Shown here in pieces: positions 318 to 53,350 of a stretch of DNA of 64,000 bases. Location: contig NZ_VKKY01000003.1 in NCBI RefSeq assembly GCF_008271695.1, positions 868,001 through 932,000 on the forward strand, read 5' to 3'. The stretch is from Rufibacter hautae (GTDB lineage Bacteria; Bacteroidota; Bacteroidia; Cytophagales; Hymenobacteraceae). The notes below the pieces were generated by a model. That model saw only the letters and a list, made by a program, of their open reading frames with translations, made no database searches and was not told where the DNA came from. Positions within the stretch are counted from its first letter, which is position 1. Each line of letters starts with the position of its first letter. The position numbers and the translations under genes were made by a program.

Positions 318-354
318 CGTTTCAAGGACCGTTTTATGAAAACGGGCTTGAAAC
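318..354. repeat. Dispersed palindrome copy, 3' of the barrel gene
   Basis: CGTTTCAAGGACCGTTTT faces AAAACGGGCTTGAAAC around a short ATG loop. The arms pair with one bulge. It has the outer GTTT...AAAC and inner TTTT...AAAA of the family described in the findings. Confidence 0.65.
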
Positions 355-398
355 CACCAATCCTGAAATTTTCAGGCTTACAACGTAGGTTAATTCAT

Positions 399-438
399 GA
401 AAAAAAGAGGGCATCTCAGGTGAGAGCCCTCTTTTTTT
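399..438. terminator. Bidirectional terminator
   Basis: AAAAAAGAGGGC and GCCCTCTTTTTTT form a hairpin with an A-run on one side and a T-run on the other. It sits between the barrel gene on the plus strand and the glycine-zipper gene on the minus strand, so it can end both transcripts. Confidence 0.85.
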
Positions 439-457
439 GACTTAAAAATAAAGGGAA

Positions 458-760
458 TTAGTCATTATTCTTCTTGGCGTACTGGTCGTAGCGCTTAGGG
501 TCTTTCTTCCGGTCTTTCTTTCTCCCGATGGCCCCACCAGCTACGGTACCGGCCGCAGCCCCGATGATGGCTCCTTTCGTACCGCCAACAATGGCTCCGG
601 CAGTGGCACCACCGGCTCCGCCAATCACCGCGCCTTTGGCTTTTTTACTCCAGCCTCTCTTTTGTTTTTTAACCTCCTGGGCTTGTGCCTCGTGCGTCAC
701 GCTGCCGCCTAATACAAACACAGAGCACAGCATGACCAATGATATCTTCAGATTTTTCAT
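458..760 (-). CDS. Secreted YMGG-type glycine-zipper protein
   Basis: A 100-residue protein with a signal peptide (residues 1-27, ending AQA), a short basic stretch, and a glycine-zipper block at about 41-80 with repeated AxxGG/GAIxG spacing. The tail is very basic and charged. Such segments can insert into or associate with membranes, so an envelope location is likely; the exact role is unknown. The gene at 9280 has the same layout and shares the KGAVIG start of the zipper, so the two are paralogues. It stands alone between a terminator and a run without genes. Confidence 0.75.
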   Translation of the reverse strand: MKNLKISLVMLCSVFVLGGSVTHEAQAQEVKKQKRGWSKKAKGAVIGGAGGATAGAIVGGTKGAIIGAAAGTVAGGAIGRKKDRKKDPKRYDQYAKKNND

Positions 761-960
761 AATCTTATTTCGGTTGATCTATTTGCATTTAACGGTGCTG
801 GCAGATGTGTGTTATGGTTCTAAAAAAGAATGTAATAGGACTTAAGAAAGGAGGGGTTTGCGTGGTGTAGCTGATTTGCCAGGATCAAACCTTCAAAATC
901 CAGTGCTTTAAATTGAACAGTGGCAGTTGAAAGGTAGTGACATTCAAACTACGATTAGCC

Positions 961-1012
961 AAAAGAAACGAGCCGAAATCAACCCCTGAAAGGCTGTTTT
1001 CGGCTCGTTTTA
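961..1012 (-). terminator. Terminator of amt
   Basis: AAACGAGCCGAAA (966-978) pairs with TTTCGGCTCGTTT (998-1010). Read on the minus strand, a T-rich stretch follows. It lies 24 bp beyond the amt stop codon. Confidence 0.75.
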
Positions 1013-1035
1013 TCAAATCTTGCTTAAAAACAGAA

Positions 1036-2394
1036 TTACATTTTCTCGTCGTGCTGCGAAAGGTCAAGACCCAGTTGCTCTTCCTCGCTGGAAACCCGCA
1101 GCGGCGAAATTAGGTCGGTTAGCTTCAGTAGAAGCCAGGAGCCGGCAAACGCAAAGATAGATACACCTACCAGCGCACCCAACTGGGCCAGAAACAACTT
1201 GGTTTCCCCGAAGAGCAGCCCTTGGTCAGCAATAGCAGGATTCACGCCTTTGCTGGCGAATACGCCCGTCAGCAGCATACCTACCATTCCGCCCACGCCG
1301 TGGCAAGGGAAAACATCCAGAGTATCATCCACGCTGGTGCGAGTCCGGAAGTCCACCAAGAGGTTACTGATCACGGCGGAGATCACGCCAATGGCGATGG
1401 AATGCGGCAACGTCACAAACCCAGCGGCCGGGGTAATAGCGACCAAGCCTACCACGGCGCCAATACAGGTACCCATGGCAGAAGGCTTGCGCCCTTTCAC
1501 GCCGTCAAAGAAAATCCAGGCCAGGGCGGCAGCGGCTGAGGCTGTCATGGTAGTGGCCAGGGCTGTGGCAGCCAAAGAATTGGCGCCCATGGCTGAGCCG
1601 GCGTTGAACCCGAACCAGCCAAACCACAGTAAACCGGTGCCCAGCAGCACAAACGTGATCATGGCCGGCGAGTGCGTAGGCTCATGTCTTCTTTTCAGGA
1701 AAAGCGCCGAGGCCAAAGCCGCCCAACCCGCCGACATATGCACCACGGTTCCGCCCGCAAAGTCCAGAACGCCTAGTTTGAACAGAATTCCCTGTGGGTG
1801 CCAGGTGGCGTGAGCCAAAGGTGCATAGATAAAGACAAAGAAGAGCAGGATGAAAACCGTGTAAGACGTAAACCTGATCCGCTCGGCGAAAGCCCCTGTG
1901 ATCAGGGCCGGCGTGATAATGGCAAATTTCAACTGGAACATGGCAAAAAGGGCCAGCGGAATGGTGGGCGCCAGTTCCCATGGAGCGCCGTCCAGCACGT
2001 TCCGCATCATGAAGAACGTGGCCGGGTTCCCGATGAAGCCCCCTATAGATTCGCCGAAGGCCAGGCTAAACCCGAAAACCACCCAGATCACCGCAATCAT
2101 GGCCATACAGATAAAGCTCTGCAGCATGGTGGAGATCACGTTTTTGCGGTTCACCATGCCTCCGTAAAAGAAGGCCAGCCCCGGAGTCATGAGCAACACA
2201 AACGCCGTGGCGGTGAGCATCCAGGCAACATCGGCCTGGTTTAACTGGGCAGAAACCACTGCCTTGGGGACAGAGGGGAAGACAAAGGTCAATCCTACCA
2301 CAATCATCAACAAGATGAAAGGGATTTTGGAAAGCTTAGTGACCGTAGTGGGCGCTGTGACAGGCTTGGTGGCTGTAGCAGTAGAAGTGATCAT
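1036..2394 (-). CDS. amt: Ammonium transporter
   Basis: A 452-residue inner-membrane Amt/MEP/Rh channel moving ammonium into the cell. About eleven membrane segments are visible. The twin pore histidines are present at H219 (in FAGGTVVHMSAG) and H365 (in DVFPCHGVGGMVG), matching H168 and H318 of E. coli AmtB. The N-terminal 20 residues are a Thr/Ala-rich extension before the first hydrophobic segment. A GlnK gene normally sits next to amt in many bacteria; none is seen here on either side. The gene is monocistronic, followed by its own terminator. Confidence 0.95.
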   Translation of the reverse strand: MITSTATATKPVTAPTTVTKLSKIPFILLMIVVGLTFVFPSVPKAVVSAQLNQADVAWMLTATAFVLLMTPGLAFFYGGMVNRKNVISTMLQSFICMAMIAVIWVVFGFSLAFGESIGGFIGNPATFFMMRNVLDGAPWELAPTIPLALFAMFQLKFAIITPALITGAFAERIRFTSYTVFILLFFVFIYAPLAHATWHPQGILFKLGVLDFAGGTVVHMSAGWAALASALFLKRRHEPTHSPAMITFVLLGTGLLWFGWFGFNAGSAMGANSLAATALATTMTASAAAALAWIFFDGVKGRKPSAMGTCIGAVVGLVAITPAAGFVTLPHSIAIGVISAVISNLLVDFRTRTSVDDTLDVFPCHGVGGMVGMLLTGVFASKGVNPAIADQGLLFGETKLFLAQLGALVGVSIFAFAGSWLLLKLTDLISPLRVSSEEEQLGLDLSQHDEKM

Positions 2395-2738
2395 AAGTTA
2401 CCTGAAATGATGTTTGTAAAAGTTTGGCAGTCTAATATTGTGAAAAATTTTTAAGGATAAAACTGTTTGGTTATGAATTGGTTAAGGAATAATTAACATT
2501 GTTGAAGATTTTAAATTAGGTAGATTGCTATTTCCATAATTAGCTTAGGCTGTTTGCTGCCGTGCCTGATACTTTCATACCAGAGTCTGAATTCATTTCA
2601 GAAATTCTTAATTTTCAGGGACCATCAAGCGGTGGAAAGTTTTTGGCGTCTACCACAAACTTTAACTTTTGCCCAGAGAGATTTCTCTTGCTAGCCTTAG
2701 CGCCAGGGGATTGCTTTCCACGTATGAGAACCTGAACC
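2395..2738. other. Intergenic region between amt and the nuclease gene
   Basis: These 344 bp separate divergent genes and should hold both promoters. The half near amt is AT-rich. I see no clear TAnnTTTG box, no repeat and no further gene. Confidence 0.5.
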
Positions 2739-3542
2739 ATGTACCAAACAACATCTATGCGCGCGCACGTTGCCCTTTCAAAACTCACTTTCTGGCTGCT
2801 TTGCCTGGGAATCATGTTGGGTTGCCAGCAAAGCAAAGACTACAGCCAGGAAAACAAACAGGCTCAGGCAGAGGAACAGCCTTCTGAGAACGGATACAAG
2901 GTGATCGGCATTAAAGACGGCGACACGGTGGAACTGCTCAAAGACGGCAAATCACTGACTGTTCGCTTACAGGGAGTGGATTGCCCCGAAAAGAAGCAGG
3001 ATTTCGGCACCCGCGCGCGGCAGTTTACCTCAGACCTGGTCTTCGGAAAGATTGTGAAGTTGGAGGTGGGGAATGTGGATCGCTACGGCCGTACGGTAGG
3101 CACCATCCTTCTGCCCGATGGCCGGACCCTGAACCAGGAACTGGTGCGGAACGGCTTTGCCTGGCATTATACCGCTTACTCCAAAGACCAGGAACTGGCC
3201 CGTCTGGAAGCCGAGGCCCGGGCCGAGAAGCGCGGGCTCTGGGCCGGTCCCTCGCCGCAGGCACCCTGGGAATACCGCCAAAGCCGCCGCGGCAAATCAG
3301 CCACCTCGGGGAACACAGAAAATGAGGAGGAAGGCAGTGTCACCAAAAAAACTACCGCACCCAAGGCTTCCGCGATAGCAAAAGGAGGCAAAGTTTACAT
3401 CTGCCAGAGCAAGGGCTCCAAGATCTTCCACACCGACCCTACCTGCAGCCGCTTGGAACAGTGCAAGAGCACCGTGGCCAACATCACCTTAGCCCAAGCC
3501 CAAAAGGAAAAGCGCACCCCCTGCAAAACCTGCGCTGATTAG
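2739..3542 (+). CDS. Lipoprotein thermonuclease-family protein
   Basis: A 267-residue staphylococcal-nuclease-type protein. The first 29 residues form a lipoprotein signal ending in IMLGC, so it is probably anchored in the envelope. The SNase domain spans about 53-180 and keeps the catalytic pattern: DGDTV near 61, R76 (VRLQG), E84 (DCPE) and R118 (RYGRTV). After a basic linker, the last 50 residues hold HTDPTCSRLEQC and PCKTC, a cysteine/histidine set that could bind a metal. A start at 2757 is also possible and would still leave a full signal sequence. No operon partner is visible. Confidence 0.85.
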   Translation: MYQTTSMRAHVALSKLTFWLLCLGIMLGCQQSKDYSQENKQAQAEEQPSENGYKVIGIKDGDTVELLKDGKSLTVRLQGVDCPEKKQDFGTRARQFTSDLVFGKIVKLEVGNVDRYGRTVGTILLPDGRTLNQELVRNGFAWHYTAYSKDQELARLEAEARAEKRGLWAGPSPQAPWEYRQSRRGKSATSGNTENEEEGSVTKKTTAPKASAIAKGGKVYICQSKGSKIFHTDPTCSRLEQCKSTVANITLAQAQKEKRTPCKTCAD

Positions 3543-3553
3543 GGCACTAGGTT

Positions 3554-3591
3554 TGTTTTAGGGCTGAATCTTAGAAAGAAAGCTTAAAACG
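3554..3591. repeat. Dispersed palindrome copy (degenerate)
   Basis: GTTTTAGGGCTGA faces AAGCTTAAAACG. Only the outer six bases pair perfectly; the layout and length match the family. Confidence 0.5.
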
Positions 3592-3752
3592 AGAGGGGAG
3601 TTGTGGTGCCTGTTGTTCAAAAAACTGCCTTTCACCATTTCGCCCTTCGTGCATGCCAATAGTAGGAGGGGAGTTTCATGCTAGTCATGCTTTTTCCTTA
3701 TTAAAAGTCTGGATGTCCCGGGAGCGTCTGCGCTTAGGCTTCTCAGCACAGA

Positions 3753-3800
3753 AAAAGCGTTTACCGCCTCTTTCCAAGAAAACAGGCGGTAAACGCTTTT
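3753..3800 (-). terminator. Palindrome-family copy acting as sbcC terminator
   Basis: AAAAGCGTTTACCGCCT (3753-3769) and AGGCGGTAAACGCTTTT (3784-3800) are perfect 17-base arms. The core CGTTT...AAACG fits the dispersed family. The stem lies about 40 bp past the sbcC stop and is followed by T-runs on the minus strand. The interval 3543-3842 holds nothing else besides this and the preceding repeat. Confidence 0.8.
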
Positions 3801-3842
3801 AATTTTTAACTCTCCAGAAGTTGGGCTTAGTGGTAAGAACCT

Positions 3843-6800
3843 TTAAAAGGCCATGCCTACGGTGCTCACTACGCTGATTTTGCTGCGGCCACCGGCTTGC
3901 TTTTCCACTACAATCTGGGTGCTGATGCGTTCTTTCAGGGCTTCAACGTGCGAGATAATCCCGATCATTTTTCCGCTGGCCTGCAGGCTTTCCAGCGCAT
4001 CCATGGCAACGTCCAGCGTTTCCGCGTCCAGCGTCCCGAAGCCTTCGTCAATAAACAAGGAGTGGATCTGGGCTTTGTGGCTGGCTAGGTCAGACAGGCC
4101 CAAAGCCAGCGCCAGGCTCACCAGGAAGCTTTCTCCGCCGGAAAGGGAGTTCACCGAGCGGACGGCATCGCCTTGGTAGGTGTCCAGAATCTGCAGCTCC
4201 AGTTCATTTTCGGTGCTCTTTAAGATACGGTAGCGATCATTGAGGCGGTGCAGGTGACGGTTGCCCAGTTCCACCAGACGCGCCAGGGTCAAACTCTGCG
4301 CATACTTGCTGAACTTCTTGCCATCGGCGGAGCCGATGAGGCGGGAAAGACGGTCCCACCGCTCGGCTTCGCCTTTCTGCACGTCCAGTTGTTGGGTGAG
4401 TTGGCGGTGGCGCTCGCGCAGCTCGGTGTCTTGCTGCAGTTGCATCTCCAGGCGGGCAATCTGCGCGAGGTGATGGTTTTTCTCTTCCTCCAAGGCGTTG
4501 ATGAGCGGCTGCAACTCTTCCAGGGTCAGCTCAGTGAGGTGGCGTTCCTTCTCGGTCTGGTATTCGGCGCGGGTTTCCCGGAGGCTATTTTCCTGCCCAT
4601 GAAGCGTTTTTTGCAGTTGGTTTTGCTCTTCCCGTAGGCGGTGTACCTCGGCTTCCGGCAGAAGCAGGGCCTGCAGGTCGGCCAAAGTACCAAAGCCCAG
4701 CGGCTGTATCTTCTGGAGGAGCGCGGCCTCAAGAGTAGCCTGCGCTTGTCTGTTCGTTTGCTGCTCCTGCTGTTTTTGGCTCAACTGATGGGAGAGCAGG
4801 TTCAATTGTTCCTGTTCTTTTTGCAGCGCGGCATCGGCAGATTGCAGGGCTTGGGCTGCTCCTTGCAAAGCCTGCTGCAGGCGCTGTTTTTCCGCTTGCG
4901 GCTGAAGCCCCTCGGGTAGGAGCCTGTAGCGTTGGGCGCGGAGTTCCTGCAAATGGGCCAGACTTTTCTGCAGGTGTTCCTGGCGCTGGTTAAGCTCCTG
5001 CTGTTTTTCGTCCCGAGACCGCTGGCAGCTTTCTACCTCGGCCTTGGCCTGGACGTATTTCTCCCGCAATTCCGGCATCTGGGCGTTTTTCTGCTCATAC
5101 TCAATCCTGCGTTTCTCCAGTTGGGCCAAAAGGTCTGCCCCGTTGCTGCCGGAGTAGGAGAGGCTATAGGTACTGAAGAACGATTGAAGTGTTTGGGCAA
5201 AGACTTTTTCCTGCTCGGCTAGATCATCCAGTTCCTCCTGCAGTCGGTGGATCTGGGTTTCTGCCTGGGCCTGTTTCTCAGCCGTTTTTTCCAATTCATG
5301 CCGAAAGCGCTGCTGTTCTGTGAGTAGCTTTTGCTCCGTTTGGTGCGCGGCCTCGGTGCGGGTTCTAAGGCCCCGGAGTTCCTCCAGCGTGGCGGTGGCG
5401 TGCCGTAGTTCGGTTTTACGGGCATTCCAATACTGGTCTATGGCCTGGGCGCCGGAGATCTCATGCGTGAGTTCCAGAGCGGTGTTGATCTGCCCGAATT
5501 GGGTACTGATAGTCTGCGCCTGCGCGGCCAACTCCTGCACCTGCTCCTGGGTATGCTGCCCGGCGATTTCCAGTTTGTGCACGGCGGCGGCCAGTTCCCG
5601 CTCCAGGCTGTCTAATTGCTGTACGCGCTGCTGCTGCCGCTGTAGGTTCTGCTCGGCCTCTGATAAAGTCTGCGGCTGGTGTTCTTCCACGAAAGGATGG
5701 TGCGTAGATCCGCACAGCGGACAGGGTTGCTCGGGCTGCAGTTGGGCGCGGGCATCTTCGTACTTTTGGATCTGGCGCTGCAGATCCACGATCTGCTGCA
5801 GGTCTTTAAGCTTGTCTTGGGCCTGTTCACGCTCGGTCTTGGTTTGGGTGAGCGAAGTGCGTCCCTGGTGCAGGTCCTGGGTGGTTTTGGAAAGCGCCGT
5901 CTGCAGCTCTTGCCGACGGGTCTCCAGTTGCAGGTAGGTTTTGCTCAGATCCAGCTGCTTTTCCAGTTGGCTGCAAACCTGAGGCAAGCGATGACAGAGT
6001 TGTTCCAGGGCCTCATGCTGCTGGCCCTGCAAAGCGGCTTTGGCCTGTTCCTGCAGTTTGGCTAGCGTGGTTTGCTGCTCTTTCAGGTGGCGTTCCGTGG
6101 TCTTCAGTTGGGTTTTCCAGGAAGCTGCGTTTTGGGTTTCTTTCTCAAAAATAAGCCGGAAATCAGTCTGTTCTTTCCGGAACCTGGTTTGCTGTTTCTG
6201 TACTTCCTCCAGGCTTTTGTATTCTGATTTCCCTTCGTGGAGGGTTTGGGTCAGTTCCTCGTCCTGCGCGTGCTCCCCGAGCCACTTTTTGATGGAGACT
6301 CCCAGCTCGGAGATTCTTTTGAACTCAGCCTGCAGTTGGTCAGACGTAGTGGCTAACTCTTTTACCTGGGCTTGCAGTTGGGTGGTGGCTGCCTCATCTT
6401 TGGTGTACTGGGCCTGTTGCGCTGCCAGATGCGTGTCTTGCTGCAAGACTTTGTCTAATCTGGGCTCTGCTTCGGTTAAGGTTTGCTGTGCAGTCTGATG
6501 TTGGGCACGGGCAGTATTGGCTGCCTCTGCATGGGAGGTGACCAGTTGCTTTTGGGCTGGAATCTGCTGTTGCAGGAAGTCTATTGTTTTGACATACGTC
6601 TGCCCCTGAAGCTGTACCTCTGAAAGACGCGCCAATTCCCCTTGGAACGGCTGAGCCTGGTCATGGCGCTGCAGTTTCTCGCGGTTGGGTTCCCAGGCTG
6701 TTTGCTGAGCTTGGGCCTGAGCTAATTGGGCAGTAAGTGACTCCTGCTTTTGGGTTAGTTTCTGCAGGTTGTCCAGCCAGATTTGCTGGCTTTGGTGCTG

Positions 6801-7511: not shown

Positions 7512-7862
7512 GGGATTGGAAACTAAGCGAGTTAGTAAAGATAACAGGTTTTAGAGAAGGGGGATGTGATATGAGAAAGGCTTTGGAGAAAAATTATGGA
7601 TCGTTCTCCACCTTAGCGTATTGTAGAAGGAAAATTCCTTCAAAATGTGCTGATGAGCTTAGTTGTCATTTCAATGTACTTAGGATTGGTCTCTTAAAAA
7701 GAGGTGGGTTTAACTTAAGGCATTATAAATAGTTCTACTTTGTCTATGAATTCTTAAGTAATTAATTTTCGCTGTTATCTTTGTAAATATTGTTTTAGGG
7801 GTGATTTTTTCAAAATAGTGCTTAAACATCAAATTTTATGAAGTCAGAATTTTACTATTTGC
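7512..7862. other. AT-rich intergenic region
   Basis: This 351-bp stretch lies between divergent genes. It is clearly AT-richer than its left side and similar to the acyltransferase gene that follows. No gene, no RNA and no strong repeat is visible. Confidence 0.5.
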
Positions 7863-8945: not shown

Positions 8946-8972
8946 AGTAGGTTCTTTTAAGGGAAGAAAGTT

Positions 8973-9022
8973 TATCAAACTAAAAGCCAGTCCATTATAA
9001 TGGACTGGCTTTTAGTTTGATA
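8973..9022. terminator. Perfect 50-bp palindrome after the acyltransferase gene
   Basis: Each half is 25 bases and the centre (8997/8998) has no spacer. It includes AAAAGCCAGTCCATTA and its exact complement. It starts 28 bp after the stop codon and is probably a terminator, though it lacks a long separate T-run. The rest of 8946-9279 holds nothing else that I can identify. Confidence 0.6.
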
Positions 9023-9813: not shown

Positions 9814-9837
9814 GCTGGGCACATGCCTACCTATAGG

Positions 9838-10407: not shown

Positions 10408-10434
10408 GCATTGAGAATTTAGCGTTAATTTCTG

Positions 10435-10702: not shown

Positions 10703-10827
10703 TGAGAGTGGCTTAGTGAGAGACTATGCACAATGTACCGCACTACTTATCGTGATGGCTTGAGACTACAAACACATATACATGAGAAAAAGCTGATCTT
10801 TTTACGCCCGTTTTCCTGAAAACACCT

Positions 10828-10869
10828 ATAAAGCAAAAAGGCACCGCATGCGGTGCCTTTTTGCTTTAT
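10828..10869 (-). terminator. Perfect 42-bp palindrome, isc operon terminator
   Basis: The halves meet at GCATGC (centre 10848/10849). The stem contains AAAAAGGCACCGC and its exact complement, with T-runs on both sides. It ends 14 bp before the IscA-type stop codon, so it terminates the isc operon. Confidence 0.85.
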
Positions 10870-13935: not shown

Positions 13936-13973
13936 CGTTTTTAGGCCGTTTTAGTAAAAACATGCCCTAAGCG
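13936..13973. repeat. Dispersed palindrome copy
   Basis: CGTTTTTAGGCCGTTTT faces AAAAACATGCCCTAAGCG. The inner part pairs imperfectly, the outer TTAGG/CCTAA pair. It lies 13 bp behind mce. Confidence 0.6.
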
Positions 13974-15825: not shown

Positions 15826-15886
15826 AAAAGAGGATTTCGTTTAGCGTCTGATTTACAAAAACAGGCGCTAAACGGATTCCTCTTTT
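15826..15886. terminator. Bidirectional terminator built on a dispersed-palindrome copy
   Basis: The core CGTTTAGCGTCTG...CAGGCGCTAAACG (15838-15874) is a family copy with a G-T wobble. It is extended by AAAAGAGGA on the left and TCCTCTTTTT on the right. It separates two convergent genes. Confidence 0.8.
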
Positions 15887-16995: not shown

Positions 16996-17033
16996 CGTTT
17001 AGGGCCTATTTTCTGCAAAACAGGCCCTAAACG
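16996..17033. repeat. Dispersed palindrome copy (near-perfect)
   Basis: CGTTTAGGGCCTATTTT faces AAAACAGGCCCTAAACG with a CTGC loop and one mismatch. It ends 4 bp before the pspC-family stop codon, in the position of a terminator, but has no T-run. Confidence 0.8.
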
Positions 17034-26278: not shown

Positions 26279-26316
26279 CTTTTTAAGGCTGATTTCTAAA
26301 AATCAGCCTTAAAAAG
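26279..26316. repeat. Dispersed palindrome copy (perfect arms)
   Basis: CTTTTTAAGGCTGATTT and AAATCAGCCTTAAAAAG pair over 17 bases with a CTAA loop. It starts 6 bp after the sortase-like gene. The arms differ from other copies but match each other. Confidence 0.8.
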
Positions 26317-30411: not shown

Positions 30412-30456
30412 CCCCGGTTTCAGGGCTCTTTTCCTAAAAATAGCCCTGAAACGGGG
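30412..30456. repeat. Dispersed palindrome copy
   Basis: CCCCGGTTTCAGGGCT faces AGCCCTGAAACGGGG with one bulged G; the inner part is TTTTCCTAAAAA. It starts 9 bp after the permease gene. Confidence 0.75.
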
Positions 30457-33362: not shown

Positions 33363-33380
33363 TCGTTTTTAACCCGATTT

Positions 33381-35120
33381 ATGGAAAACACCTCCCAAAC
33401 GCTCGCGTTGCCAGAACGCAAACCCCGCCAGTACATGCCCGCAGACTTTGAGGTACGGGACTGGGAATCGCTGGAGTCATACTTTGAGGAACTGAAAACC
33501 CGTGAGATCCACTCGCAGGAAGACCTGGAGAGATGGATCGCGGACCGCAGTGAACTGGAGAGCGTGCTCTCTGAGAACCTGGCCTGGCGCTACATCAAGA
33601 TGACCTGCGACACCCAGGACGAGGCGCTCACGCAGGCATTCCAGTTCTTCGTGACCGAGATTGAGCCCAAAGCCTCGCCGTATGACGATGCCTTCAACCG
33701 CAAACTGGTGGAATCGCCGTACATTGACGGGCTGGACGAAGAGAAATACCGCATTTACCTGCGGGGCGTGCGCCGGGCCATTGAACTGTTCCGGGAGGAG
33801 AACATTCCGCTGCAGACCGAGATCAGCACCAAGCAGCAGCAGTACGGCGCCATTGCCGGAGCCATGATGGTGACCCTGGACGGGGAAGAGATGACCCTGC
33901 AACGTGCTGCCGACCGCCTGAAGCAGACCGACCGCGCTGTGCGCGAGGATGCCTATCTAGCCATCCAGAACCGCCGCCTCGAAGACAAAGAAAAACTGGA
34001 CGAACTCTACACCGAGTTGGTGCAACTGCGCCACCAAGTGGCCCTGAACGCCGGCTTTGAGAACTTCCGGGACTACATGTTCGCCGCCCTTGGCCGATTT
34101 GACTACGGTCCTGAAGACACCTTCTCCTTCCACCAGGCCATTAAGGAGAAAGTGGTGCCCGTTACCCGCCAGATCGATTTGAACCATAAAGACCAGTTAG
34201 GCCTGGATACCCTGCGTCCTTGGGACATGGACGTTGACCCCAGTATGCTGCCGCCGCTGGAACCATTTAAAACCGGCGACCAGCTGCTTTCCCAAACCAT
34301 TGAGTGCTTCTATCACCTGGATTCTTTCTTGGGCGACTGTCTGGTAACCATGCGCGAGATGGGCCACCTGGACCTGGAATCACGCAAAGGCAAAGCACCA
34401 GGCGGTTACAATTACCCATTGGATGAGATCGGGGTGCCGTTCATCTTCATGAATGCGACTTCCTCCCTGCGCGATGTGGTAACGTTGTTGCACGAAGGCG
34501 GCCATGCGGTCCATTCCTTCCTGACCCGTGATTTACCGCTCAACGCCGCTAAACACCCACCGTCCGAGGTGGCCGAGCTTGCTTCCATGTCCATGGAATT
34601 GCTCACCCTGGATTATTGGGACATCTTCTTCCCGAACCAGGAGGATCTGGTACGCGCCAAGCGCCAACACCTGGAGGGCGTTCTGGAGACCTTCCCGTGG
34701 GTAGCCACTATTGACAAGTTCCAGCACTGGGTGTATGAGAATCCTAATCATACTGTGGAAGAGCGCCACCAGAACTGGGTGCGCATCTTTGAGGAATTCA
34801 ATTTGCAGGAAGTAGACTGGAGCGGATTGGAGCACATCAAGCCGTACATCTGGCAAAAACAGCTGCACCTCTACGAAGTGCCTTTCTATTACGTGGAGTA
34901 CGCCATGGCCCAACTAGGCGCTGTCGCCGTCTGGAAGCGCTACAAATCTGAGCCTGAAGCAGCCTTGGAAGGCTACAAAAAAGCCTTGAGCCTTGGCTAC
35001 ACCGCCACCATTGGGGAGATCTACGCCGCCGCTGGCATCCGTTTTGATTTCTCCAGCGAGTACATCCAGACTTTGGTAGACTTCGTGAAAGACGAACTAG
35101 CCCAACTGGACCACAAATAG
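33381..35120 (+). CDS. M3-family oligoendopeptidase
   Basis: A 579-residue cytoplasmic zinc peptidase of the PepF/thimet oligopeptidase family. The zinc motif is H371-E-G-G-H375 in LLHEGGHAVHSFL, and the third ligand glutamate is in SEVAELASMSMELL. The N-terminal half is all-helical. It has no signal peptide and would cut short peptides. It follows the reductase by 18 bp and may be transcribed with it. A perfect hairpin terminator lies behind it. Confidence 0.93.
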   Translation: MENTSQTLALPERKPRQYMPADFEVRDWESLESYFEELKTREIHSQEDLERWIADRSELESVLSENLAWRYIKMTCDTQDEALTQAFQFFVTEIEPKASPYDDAFNRKLVESPYIDGLDEEKYRIYLRGVRRAIELFREENIPLQTEISTKQQQYGAIAGAMMVTLDGEEMTLQRAADRLKQTDRAVREDAYLAIQNRRLEDKEKLDELYTELVQLRHQVALNAGFENFRDYMFAALGRFDYGPEDTFSFHQAIKEKVVPVTRQIDLNHKDQLGLDTLRPWDMDVDPSMLPPLEPFKTGDQLLSQTIECFYHLDSFLGDCLVTMREMGHLDLESRKGKAPGGYNYPLDEIGVPFIFMNATSSLRDVVTLLHEGGHAVHSFLTRDLPLNAAKHPPSEVAELASMSMELLTLDYWDIFFPNQEDLVRAKRQHLEGVLETFPWVATIDKFQHWVYENPNHTVEERHQNWVRIFEEFNLQEVDWSGLEHIKPYIWQKQLHLYEVPFYYVEYAMAQLGAVAVWKRYKSEPEAALEGYKKALSLGYTATIGEIYAAAGIRFDFSSEYIQTLVDFVKDELAQLDHK

Positions 35121-35135: not shown

Positions 35136-35178
35136 AAAACAGAAAAGCCTCAGAAGATATCTGAGGCTTTTCTGTTTT
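35136..35178 (+). terminator. Terminator of the reductase-peptidase unit
   Basis: AAAACAGAAAAGCCTCAGA (35136-35154) and TCTGAGGCTTTTCTGTTTT (35160-35178) pair perfectly around a 5-base loop. Confidence 0.88.
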
Positions 35179-35266
35179 AAGTCAATTTTTGCAAAATCTT
35201 CTTGAAAACGATTCTGATGTAGGCGGAAGGATTTTCTGGCTGTTCCAGTCGGATAACTAAAAGGCT

Positions 35267-36818: not shown

Positions 36819-36826
36819 TATCTTTG
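36819..36826 (+). promoter_or_regulatory. -7 box for thiL directly before a dispersed palindrome
   Basis: TATCTTTG fits TAnnTTTG. A TTTG at 36791-36794 is 24 bp upstream, slightly too far for a standard -33. The palindrome begins at the next base, so it would lie at the 5' end of the transcript. Confidence 0.45.
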
Positions 36827-36864
36827 CGTTTTAGGCAAGTTTTTCTAAAAATAAGACGAAAACG
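36827..36864. repeat. Dispersed palindrome copy upstream of thiL
   Basis: CGTTTTAGGCAAGTTTTT faces AAAATAAGACGAAAACG. The arms pair partly. Unlike most copies it lies in front of a gene. Confidence 0.55.
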
Positions 36865-37954: not shown

Positions 37955-38004
37955 CTAAACAGCAAGCCCCAACTTCCTGATAGAAGTTGGGGCTTGCTGT
38001 TTAG
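37955..38004 (+). terminator. Terminator of thiL
   Basis: CTAAACAGCAAGCCCC continues to AACTTC and pairs perfectly with GAAGTTGGGGCTTGCTG plus TTTAG: 22-base arms with a 6-base loop. Confidence 0.85.
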
Positions 38005-38033
38005 AGGGTACTTTCAAAAAATCAGGTCTAAAA
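37999..38033. repeat. Dispersed palindrome copy (degenerate, overlaps terminator)
   Basis: GTTTAGAGGGTACTTTC is followed by AAAATCAGGTCTAAAAC. The right half matches the family well; the left half doubles as the end of the thiL terminator. Confidence 0.4.
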
Positions 38034-38045
38034 CAGGGATATGCC

Positions 38046-38467: not shown

Positions 38468-38507
38468 GCGTTTGGGGGCTGTTTTTCAGAAAACAGCCCC
38501 CAAACGC
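38468..38507. repeat. Dispersed palindrome copy (perfect arms)
   Basis: GCGTTTGGGGGCTGTTTT and AAAACAGCCCCCAAACGC pair over 18 bases around TCAG. It lies 18 bp after the rlmD stop codon and probably ends that transcript. Confidence 0.85.
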
Positions 38508-39997: not shown

Positions 39998-40036
39998 CGT
40001 TTTAAAGGAGTTTTCAGAAAATCGGCCTTGAAACAG
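39998..40036. repeat. Dispersed palindrome copy
   Basis: CGTTTTAAAGGAGTTTT is followed by CAG and AAAATCGGCCTTGAAAC; partial pairing. Confidence 0.6.
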
Positions 40037-40113: not shown

Positions 40114-40152
40114 CAGTTCAAAGCGGATTTCGGGAAAACGAGCCTAAAACTG
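40114..40152. repeat. Dispersed palindrome copy
   Basis: CAGTTCAAAGCGGATTT is followed by CGGGAAAACGAGCCTAAAACTG; the ends CAGTT/AACTG pair and the centre fits the family. It is the second copy within 120 bp between rlmD and the next gene. Confidence 0.5.
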
Positions 40153-42219: not shown

Positions 42220-42258
42220 TGATTCGGGCCTGTTTTACTGAAAATAGGCCTCAAACGG
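42220..42258. repeat. Dispersed palindrome copy
   Basis: GGGCCTGTTTTACTGAAAATAGGCCT has paired arms; AAACGG follows on the right. Its right end overlaps the terminator. Confidence 0.65.
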
Positions 42259-42296
42259 AAAGAGCCCGCAGCGTACTGCGGGCTCTTTCCGTTTGA
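42251..42296. terminator. Bidirectional terminator
   Basis: TCAAACGGAAAGAGCCCGCA plus G pairs perfectly with the 21 bases ending CTTTCCGTTTGA around a CGTA loop. It separates the convergent SDR and GH130-type genes. Confidence 0.85.
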
Positions 42297-45093: not shown

Positions 45094-45116
45094 GTCTGAT
45101 AGTTTGGGTGAAGAAA

Positions 45117-48251: not shown

Positions 48252-48398
48252 AATGTCTGTTAGTTAAGGATACATGAATGGAGGTGATCTTACTTGGTAC
48301 TTCTGGCCCGGCAAAGGCCGCCAGAGCGGGTAGAAACTCTTTTTAGGAATTTGGTGCGGCCGTGTCATTCCCCAGCGCACTAGGAAACGGGGGTGAAT

Positions 48399-48406
48399 CA
48401 AATGTA
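48399..48406 (-). promoter_or_regulatory. -7 box upstream of susC
   Basis: The minus strand reads TACATTTG, an exact TAnnTTTG match, 148 bp before the susC start codon. No good -33 TTTG is present, as expected for an activator-dependent promoter. Confidence 0.5.
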
Positions 48407-48449
48407 TAATTTGTCTATCCGTTGGCTATGTACTGGAGTCACAATGTGG

Positions 48450-48465
48450 TGTACTATAGTATCAA
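48450..48465. promoter_or_regulatory. Candidate hybrid-regulator binding site, susC
   Basis: TGTACTATAGTATCAA, with the perfect 10-bp palindrome TACTATAGTA. It is 44 bp upstream of the -7 box. The same motif with one change lies upstream of the MFS gene at 54736. A further GTACT half-site is at 48430-48434, 21 bp (two helical turns) away. Confidence 0.5.
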
Positions 48466-48598
48466 CCGGCAATGGCACGCTGTTTTGCAGGGTTTCTGGT
48501 TGAAGCAAGGTTCCCCCTTTCAGAGCGGCTCAGCTGCGGATGATCTGGTGCTTTTGAAACGGAGTGCCTTGACCGAAAAGAAGAAGACAATGACTATC

Positions 48599-48637
48599 CG
48601 TTTTCAGGCTGTTTTCAGGAAAAGAAGCCAGAAATCA
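48599..48637. repeat. Dispersed palindrome copy (degenerate)
   Basis: CGTTTTCAGGCTGTTTTCAG is followed by GAAAAGAAGCCAGAAAT; GGCT/AGCC-type pairing remains in the middle. Confidence 0.45.
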
Positions 48638-48730
48638 GAAGCAGCCCTGAGGCTTTGCTTCGCTCAAAGAAGGGACCTGCTGCGGCATGATGGAGGAACC
48701 TTCTAATGGTTGACGATTCCCCTGAGACTT

Positions 48731-48769
48731 CGTTTTAAGGGTCTTTTCTGAAAAACAAGGCTAAAGCAG
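48731..48769. repeat. Dispersed palindrome copy behind the hybrid regulator
   Basis: CGTTTTAAGGGTCTTTTCTG is followed by AAAAACAAGGCTAAAGCAG. It ends 2 bp before the regulator's stop codon. Confidence 0.5.
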
Positions 48770-48770
48770 G

Positions 48771-51700
48771 TCAGGCCTGGATGCGGTGGTGCGCGCGGAA
48801 TTCATTAGGGGGGCACTCGTAGCGTTTCTTGAACTCTCGGAAAAAGTAAGATTGGTTGTTGAAGCCTGTTTGGTAGAAGATCTCAGACACGCTCAGGTTG
48901 GTGTTCTGCAACAGAGCCGCCGCTTTCTGCAGGCGCACGTGTTTGATGAACTCGGCGGGGGTCATGGCCGAAAGGGCTTTGAGCTTGCGGTACAGCTGCA
49001 TTCTGCTCAGCATCAGCTCTTTTTCAAGCAGGGCGGCGTTCAGGTCGGGGTTGTCCAGGTGCGCTTCGATGCGTTGGAGAACTTTGGAAAGGAATTCCTT
49101 ATCGGTGCTTTCCAGGTGGTTTTCGTCCAGGGAAACGGTGAAGCTGTCTTTCTGGAACAGTTGGTGCAGCCGGTTCTTGTATTCCAGAAGTTTCCGGACC
49201 CGCACCAGCAGGTGGGCCGTGTGGAAGGGTTTGGGAAGGTAGGCATCGGCGCCGGCGTCATAGCCTTCCACTTTTTCCTCCAGGGTGCCCCGGGCCGTGA
49301 GCAGCACCACCGGAATGTGACACGTTTCTGGCGTGTTTTTTAATCGGGCGCAAAGCTCCAGACCGTCCATCTTTGGCATCATGATATCGGAGATAATCAG
49401 GTCGGGGAGGGTTTTGGCCAGCAGCTCCAGGGCCTTCTGGCCGTTTTCGGCCTCAAAAATCAAAAAATCCTCTTCCAGCAGGTCCCGCAGGAGATAACGA
49501 ATATCGGCCTCATCTTCTACCAGCAGCACCATGGGCTTATGATCTGGGGCTAAGCTTTGGAGCAGGGCGTGTTTGTTGTTTTGGGAGATGGGCTGTGCGT
49601 TCTGTTTCTGAGGTTGGTGCGTGGCGGCGTGCAGCAGCGGAGAGGGTTTGTCTTGCAACACATTATCTCGGGTGAGCCCTGTTACGCTCGGAATGGCAGC
49701 GATAGGAAGAGTGGAAGTAAACGTCACCCAATCGTCAGAGCTCTGCACAGTAATCTGCCCGTTGAGCAGCGAAACCAGTTCCTGTGTGAACGCCAGCCCA
49801 ATCCCGAAGCTGAACTTCTGTTTCTGCGTCCCATCCAGCACGAAGAACCGCTCAAAGAGCTTTTGCAGTTGCTCCGGCGACAGATTACTGCCTGAGTTGG
49901 CCACCGTGATCTGCACTTGGTGCGCAGCGGCATCCTCGGTCACCGTTAGGACAACTTCCTGGTTAAGCCCACTATGTTTAAAGGCGTTGGAGAGCAGGTT
50001 GAAGACAATTTTCTCCAGCTTGTCCTTATCGGTCCAGCCCAGCACTGCCGGGCTGATGTGCGTGGTGAACCGAAGATTTTTCTGCTCTTCCAAAGGCGTA
50101 AAGAGTTCGGCAATGTTGGCCAGCAGCGCCGAGACGTTCACATAGCTGTAATGCACCGTCAGGTGGCCTTCCTGCGCCTTCCTGAACTCAAGAATCTGGT
50201 TCACCAGGTAATGCAGCCGCGAGGTGTGCTGCTGTACAAGGGACAGGAAATAAGCGCTGTCACCCGACTTCGCCTGCGGTTCCTTTTTCTGAAGGTAGCG
50301 TTCCAAAGAGCCGGTGATGAGCGTGAGCGGCGTCTGCAGTTCATGGGCAATGTTGGTGAAGAAACCCAACTGCTCCTGGTGAATCTCTTCGTCTTTCAGC
50401 CGCAGGCGATGTTCCAACTCCAGCTGGTTTTTCATTTCCAGGCGACTCCGGCGGTAAGAGGAGTAGGCGTAGAGGGAAACCACCGTCACCACAAAGTAGA
50501 ACAGAAAAGCCTGCCAGCTCAGCCACAGGTATTGGTCCACGGTTACCCGGAACAGCACGGCCTCCTGCGTCCATTTGCCTTCGCCGTTCGTCCATTTCAC
50601 TTTGAAGGTGTAGGTGCCAGGCGCCAGGTTGCGGTACGAGATCCGGCCATTGGTGTTGGAGTACACCCAGGCTTGGTCTGCTCCCTCCAACAGATAAGCG
50701 TACTGTGATTTCTCTGATTTTTGGAAGTCAATGGCTTTCAAGCGGAGATCAAAAAAACCTTCGCGGCGGCTGACGGTGAAGTTCTCCGGTTTCTGTCTCT
50801 GGCTTGGCCGAAGCACCAGCTGGCCATAGGCATTTCGGTAAATCTTACTGCCCAGTTGCAAATCCGTGACCAGCAGGTTTACCTGGCGGTCACTGGCCTG
50901 GATCTCGTCTGGGTTCACGTAGTTGAACCCGTAAATCCCCCCGAAGAAAAGCATTCCTTGGGCATTCTTCCACACGGCGCCGTCACTGAACTCGTTGCCC
51001 TGTAAGCCATCCTCTGACTGGAACCGGTCTACCTGCAGAGAGGCGGGGTTGATGCGGGCTAGGCCATTGTTGGTGCTGACCCAGATGTTGCCCTTGCCGT
51101 CCTCAGAGATGCCGTGGATGGAGTTGTTGGGCAAGCCTTCCTCGGTGGTCAGCTTTTGAAAGATCAATTTTCGCTGGAGTACTTGGTCCTCCTGGACCCA
51201 GTTCAGCCCATAGCTGGTACCTATCCAGAGGCGGTTCTGGCGATCTTTGTACAAAGAAAGCACATCATTATGCGACAGGCCCTCAACCTCAGAGAAAGCT
51301 TTGAAATGCCGGAATTTGCGCGTGGTTTTGTTGAATAAACTCAGCCCTCCGTTGCGGCAGCCCAGCCACAGATAGTTTCCTTGGCCCGCCAGCAGGGAGA
51401 AGATTACGTTGCTGGCCGGGCCGCTGTCATCACCGTGGAAAGGGAAACGCTCCAGGTATTGGACTGCCCATTTCCCTGACTTCTGGGCCCTGAGTTTTAA
51501 ATGGACTAAACCGTAGCCGCTGGTGGCCAGCCAAACGGAGCTGTCCTGGTCCGGCAACACGGCATATACCGAGGCGAACGCCGCATGCTGGTGGCTGCCC
51601 GCTACGTCCTTCCATTTCGTGAACTTCTGGGTTTCCGTATCATACAGCGTAATCCCTGGGCCGTCGGTGCCCAAGTACACCAATCCTTCTTTTCCGGGCT

Positions 51701-52892
51701 GGATGGCATACACCGCATTATTCTCCAGTTGGTGCGGCGCCGAGTAGGAGAGTGGCTCCGCTTCCAGTTGCCGCAGTTTGGGGCTATAGTTAAACCTGAT
51801 AATCCCGTTTCCTTTGGTGCCCACCCAAATCTCTTCGCCTACCTCGCTGAAAGCCCGCACCGCTTTGAAAGGCGCCCCGGTGGGCAGTTCAGAAATGCTG
51901 TGGAATAACCGGTAGTTGGGCGCTATTTTCAGGATGCCGTTGCCATCTGTTCCCACCCAAATGGTTTGGTCTTTGGAGGTCCAGAAAGAAGTAGCGGCAA
52001 CGCTGTTCAGGAGCTGGAGTTCTTTGCCCAACGCCAACGGCTGGAAACGGTGATCAAAGCTCCCGACGCCTCCGCTTGCCCAAGCCACCTGAAACCCGGA
52101 AGGAACTTCTACGAAAGCTTTGATGGGTTCTGGAAAATAGGCAACTGCTTTCGCCTGCAAGGTTACAGGAGAGACTTCCCAGAGCGTATGGGTGCCGGTT
52201 TCCAGGAGAAAGATATTTTTCCCTTGCACGAAGAGTTGTGCTGCCTTAACAGGTAAAGTGGCGCTTATCTGGAAAGTTTTGTTGCGAGGAGAATAGACCT
52301 CTACCCGTTCCTGATTCAGAATCCAAAGATTCCCTTGGGCATCAAAACTGAGATCTGAGACGTTCGCTAAAGGGAAGGGGAACTGAAACGGTTCAAACAC
52401 CTGCGTGGCGGCGTTGAAGTGTTTCCCCACGGTTTTCCCGTTTTCTTGAATTATGCAGAATACCCCTTGCTGGGGGCAGATGGCTAAAACCTGTGCCTCT
52501 ACTTGTCTGCCGTTTTCATAAAAGTAGTTAGAAAACTCACCGGTTCTTTTGCTGTAGCGGGAGATGCCTTCGCTGGTTTCAATCCAGATGTTTTTGGCAG
52601 CGTCTTCAGAAAGGTAGGTGATGACGTTGTTCCCGATGCTTTTGCCTTGGCCCTTCTGGTGGTAATTGAAAATATGGAAACTAGAGCCGTCGTACACATT
52701 CAGGCCGTCATACGTCCCTATCCAAAGCAAATCATCAGAATCCTGGTAGAGGGCATTGACGCAGCTGTTGGATAACCCGTTCCGGCTGTCTAGCTGCTGC
52801 ACCGCGAAAGACCTGCCCATAGATGGTTGGCCTAAAACCAAATTTCCCCAGGAAAGCGAAGCCAAAAAGAACAGCAATAAGAAACGCAGCAT
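48771..52892 (-). CDS. Hybrid two-component system regulator (HTCS)
   Basis: A 1373-residue one-protein signalling system that senses glycan fragments in the periplasm and binds DNA in the cytoplasm. In order: signal peptide (1-21), two-component regulator propeller repeats (about 30-690, e.g. DLLWIGTYDGLNVYD), a Y_Y_Y domain (about 700-785), one membrane helix, a HisKA domain with the phospho-histidine in TNIAHELQTPLTLI, an ATPase domain (NLLSNAFKHSG, FSFGIGLAF), a receiver with the aspartate in DLIISDIMMPKMDG, and an AraC helix-turn-helix (MLSRMQLYRKLKALSAMTPA). It lies between the MFS and susC genes and presumably controls both. Confidence 0.95.
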   Translation of the reverse strand: MLRFLLLFFLASLSWGNLVLGQPSMGRSFAVQQLDSRNGLSNSCVNALYQDSDDLLWIGTYDGLNVYDGSSFHIFNYHQKGQGKSIGNNVITYLSEDAAKNIWIETSEGISRYSKRTGEFSNYFYENGRQVEAQVLAICPQQGVFCIIQENGKTVGKHFNAATQVFEPFQFPFPLANVSDLSFDAQGNLWILNQERVEVYSPRNKTFQISATLPVKAAQLFVQGKNIFLLETGTHTLWEVSPVTLQAKAVAYFPEPIKAFVEVPSGFQVAWASGGVGSFDHRFQPLALGKELQLLNSVAATSFWTSKDQTIWVGTDGNGILKIAPNYRLFHSISELPTGAPFKAVRAFSEVGEEIWVGTKGNGIIRFNYSPKLRQLEAEPLSYSAPHQLENNAVYAIQPGKEGLVYLGTDGPGITLYDTETQKFTKWKDVAGSHQHAAFASVYAVLPDQDSSVWLATSGYGLVHLKLRAQKSGKWAVQYLERFPFHGDDSGPASNVIFSLLAGQGNYLWLGCRNGGLSLFNKTTRKFRHFKAFSEVEGLSHNDVLSLYKDRQNRLWIGTSYGLNWVQEDQVLQRKLIFQKLTTEEGLPNNSIHGISEDGKGNIWVSTNNGLARINPASLQVDRFQSEDGLQGNEFSDGAVWKNAQGMLFFGGIYGFNYVNPDEIQASDRQVNLLVTDLQLGSKIYRNAYGQLVLRPSQRQKPENFTVSRREGFFDLRLKAIDFQKSEKSQYAYLLEGADQAWVYSNTNGRISYRNLAPGTYTFKVKWTNGEGKWTQEAVLFRVTVDQYLWLSWQAFLFYFVVTVVSLYAYSSYRRSRLEMKNQLELEHRLRLKDEEIHQEQLGFFTNIAHELQTPLTLITGSLERYLQKKEPQAKSGDSAYFLSLVQQHTSRLHYLVNQILEFRKAQEGHLTVHYSYVNVSALLANIAELFTPLEEQKNLRFTTHISPAVLGWTDKDKLEKIVFNLLSNAFKHSGLNQEVVLTVTEDAAAHQVQITVANSGSNLSPEQLQKLFERFFVLDGTQKQKFSFGIGLAFTQELVSLLNGQITVQSSDDWVTFTSTLPIAAIPSVTGLTRDNVLQDKPSPLLHAATHQPQKQNAQPISQNNKHALLQSLAPDHKPMVLLVEDEADIRYLLRDLLEEDFLIFEAENGQKALELLAKTLPDLIISDIMMPKMDGLELCARLKNTPETCHIPVVLLTARGTLEEKVEGYDAGADAYLPKPFHTAHLLVRVRKLLEYKNRLHQLFQKDSFTVSLDENHLESTDKEFLSKVLQRIEAHLDNPDLNAALLEKELMLSRMQLYRKLKALSAMTPAEFIKHVRLQKAAALLQNTNLSVSEIFYQTGFNNQSYFFREFKKRYECPPNEFRAHHRIQA

Positions 52893-53157
52893 ATTCTAGA
52901 GAATTAACGGGGACCCAGTGTAATTCTAAGCGTTATTCTTCAGGCAAGACGGCGGTTAAGGCCAAATGGAGGTTGTATGTAGTATGATGAAAATTTGTCT
53001 TTAAATAACTTTGGCTCTAAGGCTGTGAGTAGATGTATCTAATTTAGTGATTTTTTTGCTAAAATCTTAACCTTGTGCTAGTTGTTGCAGAAGGCCTTTG
53101 GTAGGTTTTGAGACCGGCGCGGGTAAATCAAATGCTGTCACCATTTGGTTTTTACAG

Positions 53158-53196
53158 CTGTTTTAGGACTATTTTCTGAAAATTGGCCTTGAAACG
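53158..53196. repeat. Dispersed palindrome copy
   Basis: CTGTTTTAGGACTATTTTCT is followed by GAAAATTGGCCTTGAAACGG. The centre TTTTCTGAAAA is the commonest core; the arms pair partly. Confidence 0.6.
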
Positions 53197-53288
53197 GATT
53201 TTCAGATTACTGCCTTTTAACGTTGGGGTAAAACCGAGTTCCTTAGCGTTTAGAATTTTTGGAGGGATGTCCTGTCGGGTAAGCATAG

Positions 53289-53350
53289 GAACCAGCCTTC
53301 TGTTTTGCGCCTGTTCACAAGAAAACTGGCTCAAAACAGAAGGCTGGTTC
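53289..53350 (-). terminator. MFS gene terminator enclosing a palindrome-family copy
   Basis: GAACCAGCCTTCTGTTTTG (53289-53307) and CAAAACAGAAGGCTGGTTC (53332-53350) are perfect 19-base arms. The interior, CGCCTGTTCACAAGAAAACTGG, gives a family-like core (53300-53339). The interval 52893-53374 holds only this and the copy at 53158. Confidence 0.75.

What the first reader, a model, noticed from the sequence alone, without database searches (positions are those of the whole stretch)
318..53339. Family of about 38-bp intergenic palindromes with arms that change together
At least 17 copies are visible (318, 3554, 3757, 13936, 15838, 16996, 26279, 26404, 30412, 36827, 37999, 38468, 39998, 40114, 42220, 48599, 48731, 53158, 53300). 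The frame is CGTTT-(6-8 variable)-TTTT-(3-4)-AAAA-(6-8 variable)-AAACG. The variable arms differ strongly between copies (AGGGCCT, GGGGGCT, ACCGCCT, AAGGCTGA, CAGGGCT) yet pair within each copy, so the fold and not the sequence seems to be kept. Nearly all lie just behind stop codons, often beside or inside terminators. REP/BIME elements are known in other bacteria, but I do not know a description of this one.
Basis: seen in the sequence. Interest (0 to 1): 0.75.

Follow-up and report, generated by a model that had tools for sequence, protein, structure and literature searches.

The report
Rufibacter hairpin repeats with species dialects
One genus of bacteria carries a great many copies of a 38-letter mirror-like DNA element, mostly behind its genes and often at places shared between species, yet several species spell their copies in their own way and some copies look like the top of hairpins that end transcription.

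Summary
The palindromes are real. All 19 listed positions match a covariance model; the window holds 28 places at E<=0.01. The own genome has 217 exact-frame copies against 0 for the reversed pattern; sampled density suggests 2,500-2,700 per genome. All 16 genomes of the genus (Rufibacter) have 10-1103 exact copies; 4 of 134 genomes from five other genera of the family have one.

Arms change together only weakly between copies of one genome but strongly at single orthologous sites across species, and how palindromic a copy is goes with its site. About a fifth are near-perfect; those with locus-specific outer stems often end in T-runs, like capped bidirectional terminators. Arms follow species dialects (one variant: 472 copies in R. 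immobilis, 0-17 in 15 others), also at most shared sites outside divergent junctions: concerted evolution.

It is REP-like but lacks the GTAG/CGTC tag, strand asymmetry, fixed pairing and a link to RAYT genes. How copies are homogenised is unknown. Verdict: new variant of the REP kind.

The parts
319..354 (.). copy, imperfect (5 of 8 arm pairs), inside a small doubtful ORF
3555..3590 (.). copy, imperfect, 12 nt after a stop codon
3759..3794 (.). near-perfect copy with 6-bp outer stem running into A-run/T-run: terminator-like, convergent junction
13937..13972 (.). imperfect copy behind a gene
15839..15873 (.). near-perfect copy in the middle of a 29-bp-arm inverted repeat (86% complementary) with A/T ends: terminator-like, convergent junction; an element is there in G042 and G051 as well
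16997..17032 (.). near-perfect copy between co-directional genes; an element is there in G027 and G051
26280..26314 (.). perfect 17-bp-arm copy, about 6 nt after a stop codon
26404..26438 (.). imperfect copy
30417..30452 (.). near-perfect copy, convergent junction; element in 6 of 6 genomes compared
35174..35209 (.). imperfect copy, convergent junction; profile match in 10 of 11 genomes, imperfect in nearly all
36828..36863 (.). imperfect copy upstream of a gene between divergent genes; profile match at this junction in 16 of 16 genomes; sequence frozen in most
37999..38034 (.). imperfect copy, convergent junction
38470..38505 (.). perfect copy; element at this junction in 16 of 16 Rufibacter genomes with differing arms
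39999..40034 (.). imperfect copy, first of two in one junction; two copies in all 4 genomes compared
40116..40150 (.). imperfect copy, second of two in that junction
42221..42256 (.). copy 5 nt after a stop; its right foot is shared with the 5' arm of a 21-bp terminator-like hairpin (42251-42296)
48600..48635 (.). imperfect copy, first of two in a junction; two copies in all 4 genomes compared
48732..48767 (.). imperfect copy, second of two
53160..53195 (.). imperfect copy, first of two in a junction; two copies in all 4 genomes compared
53302..53337 (.). copy with 13-bp outer stem; the corresponding copies in G027, G042 and G051 have outer stems of 12, 9 and 13 bp

Best explanation
A REP-like dispersed DNA palindrome special to Rufibacter, here called the GTTT/AAAC element. 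It multiplied before the known species of the genus split (inferred from shared sites), settled mostly behind genes, and has largely stayed at the same sites since (shown for most, not all, of the junctions compared). At some sites, mainly between convergent genes, selection keeps it a near-perfect palindrome that extends into a locus-specific outer stem and often a T-run; there it serves as the top of a bidirectional intrinsic terminator (pairing, compensation and T-runs shown; termination inferred). At the other sites it is an imperfect copy. The core, unlike the outer stem, is repeatedly rewritten from other copies in the same genome, so several species have their own arm dialect even at shared sites (concerted pattern shown; copying inferred, enzyme unknown). 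Copying is preferred over selection site by site because it explains hundreds of equal changes with few causes.
For: Genus-wide and nearly genus-limited: 16 of 16 against 4 of 134 genomes with a single match; covariance model saturated (105 of 105 scored candidates) in 14 of 14 Rufibacter, 1-2 matches in 6 of 46 others. Old sites: profile match at two junctions in 16 of 16 genomes and at four others in 14 or 15 of 16. Compensation at one site: 67 cells changed on both sides against 20.6 +/- 3.9 shuffled, score 0.556 against 0.181 +/- 0.023 and at most 0.184 when slid (13 genomes); second site 46 against 17.7 +/- 3.4 (11 genomes). Palindromicity goes with the site: between-site sum of squares 2042 against 439 +/- 123, 0 of 2000 permutations. 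Inner and outer pairing go together, odds ratio 10.5, p 7e-24. T-rich ends: 44% and 45% with outer stems of 4-7 and 8 or more (n 59 and 40), 13% with 1-3 (n 189), 4% with none (n 217). Dialects. At shared sites arms are nearer to own-genome copies than to orthologues in 22 of 26 comparisons outside divergent junctions (Wilcoxon p 5e-4). The conserved unit ends near C-GTTT...AAAC-G while flanks are locus-specific.
Against: Most copies are not good palindromes, and within one genome arms pair only slightly more than shuffled arms. At two divergent-junction sites arms are not nearer to own-genome copies (2 of 9, with 6 the other way, p 0.31). Some junctions have the element in only part of the genomes (4 of 14, 7 of 14, 4 of 10, 5 of 10). 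No clean empty site or target duplication could be read; the six genomes listed have nearest relatives at 82-92% identity in one gene. Selection by an unknown sequence-specific protein would also give dialects. No enzyme was found and transcription was not measured. At the site G045 has a badly paired copy (1 of 8), which is not among the 13 rows, and G054 has none. Own genome and G012 show weaker dialects. The comparisons are few and not independent.
Confidence: 0.5

Rival explanations
1. The core is the double-stranded binding site of an abundant dimeric DNA-binding protein; each arm is a half-site. Dialects follow changes in the protein's specificity, and selection at each site rewrites the arms.
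For: Within a genome each arm fits a consensus but hardly covaries with the other; among the arm pairs mutual information is high only at the two lowest, 5-32 and 6-31; no G-T over A-C preference on the transcribed strand, 199 against 183, p 0.44; the spacing of the frame is fairly strict.
Against: Half-sites almost never occur alone: 0 of 44, 0 of 24, 1 of 20, 0 of 21 and 1 of 7. Pairing runs on into locus-specific flanks in a minority. Hundreds of sites would have to change in step in one lineage.
Confidence: 0.25
2. A classical REP spread by a RAYT (TnpA-REP type Y1 transposase) of the same genome.
For: High-copy intergenic palindromes are typical of REPs; Y1 genes exist in 15 of 16 Rufibacter genomes.
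Against: Y1 genes are about as common in genera without the element (38 of 46); G017 has none but 265 exact copies, G048 has 6 but 10 exact copies (G048 uses a shifted frame). Of 17 Y1 loci, 7 have an element within 400 bp on the 5' side and 10 on the 3' side by my count of the listing, near the own-genome background of 32% and 49%. The three full-length Y1 genes are flanked by other inverted repeats. No unpaired GTAG or CGTC tag.
Confidence: 0.08
3. Only terminators: selection for hairpins plus shared base composition produced similar stems without any common element.
For: Outer-stem copies look like intrinsic terminators and compensate strongly.
Against: 217 exact frames against 0 in the reversed control, almost none in other genera, species-specific cores, and most copies have no T-run (TTTTT within 30 nt after 13 of 130).
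Confidence: 0.05
4. A DNA-uptake-type watermark kept by biased transformation, as in Neisseria.
For: Many copies with species dialects and use in terminators resemble uptake sequences (recalled; PMC3630211 seen in listing).
Against: Lone half-sites are nearly absent (2 of 116) and copies are mainly in noncoding DNA.
Confidence: 0.04
5. Perfect copies arise by mutation alone: template switching in a hairpin makes one arm a copy of the other.
For: There is an excess of perfect copies over a shuffled-like rest, and perfection runs through core and flanks together.
Against: How palindromic a copy is goes with the site across species, and template switching within a copy cannot make genome-wide dialects.
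Confidence: 0.08

Closest known systems
REP elements (GTAG- and CGTC-tagged families; PMC3733652, passages read; TnpA-REP, PMC8266576, passages read)
   Same: Short palindromes in high copy, noncoding, often behind genes, in families with alternative complementary stem bases. PMC3733652 reports CGTC repeats in Bacteroidetes too.
   Different: No unpaired GTAG/CGTC tag, consensus symmetric on both strands, no fixed pairing in the own genome, no RAYT link, arms longer than the 6-13 bp stems given for GTAG families, retained at many orthologous sites with species dialects.
Neisserial DNA uptake sequences and their dialects (PMC3630211, seen in search listing only)
   Same: High copy number and dialects; use of inverted pairs in terminators is recalled.
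   Different: Here the palindrome is the unit; lone half-sites are nearly absent.
Intrinsic (rho-independent) bidirectional terminators
   Same: Outer-stem copies have long stems, often with A-runs and T-runs at their ends, and compensate across species.
   Different: The top of the hairpin is a repeated, species-specific core; most copies have no T-run.

Membership tests
REP (GTAG/CGTC) | short palindrome, high copy, mainly intergenic | tested here: met
   but most copies are imperfect palindromes
REP (GTAG/CGTC) | conserved unpaired GTAG or CGTC at the foot | tested here: not met
   base profile of 12 positions on either side in five genomes shows mainly C/T before and G/A after the feet, with a partly conserved TTCC...GGAAA in G048
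REP (GTAG/CGTC) | strand asymmetry | tested here: not met
   arm consensus is its own reverse complement
REP (GTAG/CGTC) | association with a RAYT gene | tested here: not met
BIME / REPIN | pairs of elements at fixed short spacing | tested here: not met
   own genome: 15 noncoding spacings under 200 bp against about 21 with random placement; bumps at 120-140 and 260-300 bp in the pooled species were not tested and may be one junction counted in several species
DNA uptake sequence | single oriented motif, many copies in coding DNA | tested here: not met
   lone half-sites 2 of 116 over five species
Intrinsic terminator | GC-rich stem followed by T-run | tested here: inconclusive
   T-rich end in 44-45% of copies with outer stems of 4 bp or more, 13% with 1-3, 4% with none
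MITE / non-autonomous transposon | target-site duplication or clean empty site | tested here: inconclusive
   presence/absence differs at some junctions but flanks are too diverged to read
Any of these | activity shown in the cell | not testable with these tools
   needs RNA 3'-end mapping, binding or mobility assays

The most novel reading that the evidence does not exclude
Hairpin cores at fixed, orthologous sites, in the thousands per genome, are overwritten in place by an unknown machinery that copies 38-bp hairpins between sites (for instance through single-stranded hairpins or repair of breaks at palindromes), so that a whole genome changes its hairpin dialect while each site keeps its own outer stem and terminator role.
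Probability: 0.3. Interest if true: 0.85.

Novelty: new variant of a known kind. Interest (0 to 1): 0.6.

Why it matters
It offers a system in which the usual RAYT account of REP spread does not seem to hold, with some 2,500 copies per genome and 16 species to compare. Because many copies sit at orthologous sites and carry species dialects, it makes testable how dispersed short repeats in bacteria are homogenised, and how a repeat becomes part of a terminator.

Tried and rejected
RAYT origin: tested and not supported. Uptake-sequence idea: lone half-sites nearly absent. RNA-level selection: no excess of G-T over A-C mismatches on the transcribed strand (co-directional 199 to 183; those within 70 nt of the stop 121 to 111); this does not exclude an RNA function. 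BIME-like pairs at 116-142 bp, which the window suggests by eye, do not exceed random placement in the own genome; the pooled species were not tested. Rfam at gathering cut-offs: only two tRNAs in the window. The T-run comparison was biased by unequal window lengths and is replaced. The covariance-model count for whole genomes is capped by the tool at 150 or 105 scored candidates, so it gives no total; the copy number per genome is extrapolated from sampled stretches. Literature: no paper on this family found in searches (held library only; 34 papers hold 'Rufibacter', 30 of them were listed and judged by title and start of abstract). Of PMC3733652 and PMC8266576 I read passages; of PMC12306157 one passage, the abstract and the outline.

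Rows dropped: one search uses 13 of the 15 genomes with the element at that site (G045 and G027 have 35-nt cores, and G045's is poorly paired). One search uses 11 of 14 (G000 and G027 have shorter cores; G037 was left out without a length reason). One search uses the first 100 of 217 copies. One search uses 51 of 67 elements, those with 36-nt cores; 39 of 51 fall to their own dialect, but G017's test stretch overlaps its training stretch, so without it 31 of 43. One search leaves out 7 elements without 36-nt cores. One search takes the best-scoring copy per genome, so that in junctions with two copies different copies may be compared. The background is from the own genome only. Gene calls are my greedy ORF calls. 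The first junction set was chosen because the window has an element there; searches took all junctions of the stretch that passed a length filter.
Full report
What was checked. All are in the sequence. A loose scan for the frame gave 22 hits in the window and 0-1 in each of ten simulated sequences. In the whole genome (5.84 Mb) the exact frame GTTT-8-TTTT-4-AAAA-8-AAAC occurs 217 times, the reversed pattern 0 times. A profile made from 21 window copies gave 224 hits in 464 kb of own sequence at E<=1, with 0 in the reversed and 1 in the simulated control; at E<=0.5 it gave 216 with 0 in the reversed control. With a profile drawn from ten genomes the figure is 208 in 484 kb. Extrapolated, this is about 2,500-2,700 copies. 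Density in the 16 genomes sampled runs from 0.23 (G006) to 0.73 (G063, only 31 kb) per kb. A covariance model from 60 random own copies finds 28 places at E<=0.01 in the window (24 are given as parts, the four weakest or gene-internal ones at 6129, 14230, 16702 and 33365 are not) and none at that cut-off in 220 kb of other genera (the combined profile gives one 9-bit hit there).

Where it occurs. In 150 genomes of the family, 16 of 16 of the same genus have 10-1103 exact copies; of 134 genomes from five other genera four have one copy each. The covariance model agrees: saturated in 14 of 14, 1-2 matches in 6 of 46 others. In G048, with only 10 exact copies, the frame itself has moved to ...CATTTCNNGAAATG....

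Position. By greedy ORF calls in 464 kb, 47 of 65 convergent, 65 of 146 co-directional and 17 of 61 divergent junctions of at least 45 bp hold an element. Of 130 element-stop pairs within range, 41 start 0-14 nt after the stop codon and 6 overlap the gene end.

Arms within one genome. Sixty random own copies show little covariation: score 0.186 against 0.163 +/- 0.012, 18 of 500 shuffles reaching it. In 230 own 36-mers mutual information is strong at the two lowest variable pairs (5-32, z 10.6; 6-31, z 7.1), at the loop centre, between neighbouring bases and between a few unpaired columns (27-29, 25-31, 8-10; z 5.7-7.0), but not at the upper arm pairs. The associations of unpaired columns are what copied sub-families would give. 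The number of paired arm bases shows an excess of 7-8 of 8 (14 of 100 against 1.6) over a shuffled-like rest. In one search six of seven species have more than twice the shuffled number of 8-of-8 copies, G045 just under twice. Good inner pairing goes with pairing of locus-specific outer flanks (outer run of 4 or more in 65 of 129 copies with 7-8 inner pairs, 43 of 487 others). In the 99 noncoding copies with outer stems of 4 bp or more, 44-45% have 5 or more T in the 8 nt after the stem on one strand or the other, against 13% of 189 with 1-3 and 4% of 217 with no outer pair. These look like intrinsic terminators capped by the element. As a whole the family has no T-run: TTTTT within 30 nt after 13 of 130 and within 60 nt after 26 of 130; 29 of 106 stops without an element have it at 40-100 nt.

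Orthologous sites. Using conserved neighbouring genes, junctions were compared across up to 16 genomes. Two (window 38414/38526 and 36713/36913) have a profile match in 16 of 16. Four others have it in 14 or 15 of 16, one in 8 of 8, one in 10 of 11. Junctions with two elements keep two in all four genomes compared (39944/40182, 48251/48771, 52892/53375). Some junctions lack it in all genomes compared, and some vary: 4 of 14, 7 of 14, 4 of 10, 5 of 10. At the junction L197:11079/11176 the stems differ in nearly every species and mostly still pair: 20 of 26 pairs have changes on both sides, 67 such cells against 20.6 +/- 3.9, score 0.556 against 0.181 +/- 0.023, slid controls at most 0.184 (13 genomes). 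A second site gives 46 against 17.7 +/- 3.4 and 0.403 against 0.150 +/- 0.023 (11 genomes). How palindromic a copy is goes with its site over species (23 sites, 176 elements, 0 of 2000 permutations). This is what selection on a hairpin at certain sites predicts.

Dialects. Arms differ by species as a whole genome: GTTTAGGGGC...GCCCCTAAAC occurs 472 times in G045 and 0-17 times in the 15 others; GTTTTTGG[CG][CT]T... 219 times in G022, 90 in its sister G017, 46 in G060 and 0-9 elsewhere (one-gene tree). Samples show separate arm consensus forms for G045, G012, G060, G022 with G017, and G048, while the own genome is a mixture. The loop also differs: in the listed copies GG/CC is common in the centre in G045, CTGG/CCAG in G022. 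At sites shared by eight or more genomes, arms are closer to other copies in the same genome than to orthologues in 22 of 26 comparisons outside divergent junctions (p 5e-4); at two divergent-junction sites only 2 of 9 are, 6 the other way, not significant (p 0.31). Arms of region-2 elements fall to their own dialect in 31 of 43 cases without G017, least well in G012 (4 of 9) and G060 (2 of 4). The unit that is shared ends near C-GTTT...AAAC-G, a little further out in G048, and flanks are local. This is a pattern of concerted evolution.

How it may work. Shown: many copies, nearly genus-limited, retained at many sites, site-bound hairpin conservation, dialects. Inferred: that outer-stem copies end transcription, and that cores are copied between sites. 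I prefer copying because one new variant that spreads explains some 470 equal copies in one species, whereas selection would have to make the same paired changes site by site. A sequence-specific protein is the main rival. No enzyme was found. The absence of a G-T excess on the transcribed strand gives no support for an RNA role of the core.

What it is not. Y1 transposase genes (the kind that includes RAYTs) are not linked: about equal frequency in genera without the element (38 of 46), absent in G017, not clearly enriched beside elements. The three full-length Y1 genes seen (L214-L216) have other short inverted repeats nearby, of the forms GGCTTTAGCC/GGCTAAAGCC and AATGGGTT..AACCCATT, though not each of them on both sides. 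The unpaired GTAG or CGTC tag of REPs is missing (the tags as described in PMC3733652 and PMC8266576, passages read). Lone half-sites are 2 of 116, so it is not an uptake watermark.

Novelty. In the held library 34 papers contain the word Rufibacter, and none of the 30 listed is about repeats by title or start of abstract; searches found no description in their listings. A REP survey by RepRanger does not name Rufibacter, Hymenobacter or Pontibacter in its main text. I file it as a new variant of the REP kind. The possible in-place rewriting would be the surprising part.

Noticed in passing
window 36826-36864 and L197:13257-13386 with orthologues: At these divergent junctions an element lies at a likely promoter: a TATCTTTG or TATTTTTG box (Bacteroidota -7 type, recalled) precedes or lies within it, and the sequence is similar across most species instead of following the dialect; the element seems to have been taken over by the promoter.
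   Followed up: partly
L214, L215, L216: Full-length Y1 transposase genes with two other short palindromes nearby, GGCTTTAGCC/GGCTAAAGCC and AATGGGTT..AACCCATT, possibly the REPs of these genes.
   Followed up: partly
window 42251-42296; L197:19231-19287 in G037: Several plain terminators share feet AAACAGAAAG...CTTTCTGTTT with the element's own feet, and in G037 two half-elements face outwards around a terminator, as if the element were turned inside out.
   Followed up: no
window 8973-9022 and 10828-10869: Perfect inverted repeats of 25 and 21 bp with no loop and without the element's frame; the second touches the weak copy at 10799-10834.
   Followed up: no
window 55665-55737 and 55803-55875: Two tRNA genes with equal Rfam scores (71.3 bits) close together, with short inverted repeats between and after them.
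   Followed up: no
window 33365-33400: An element-like match overlaps a start codon between two close genes; a profile match is there in 9 of 11 genomes.
   Followed up: partly
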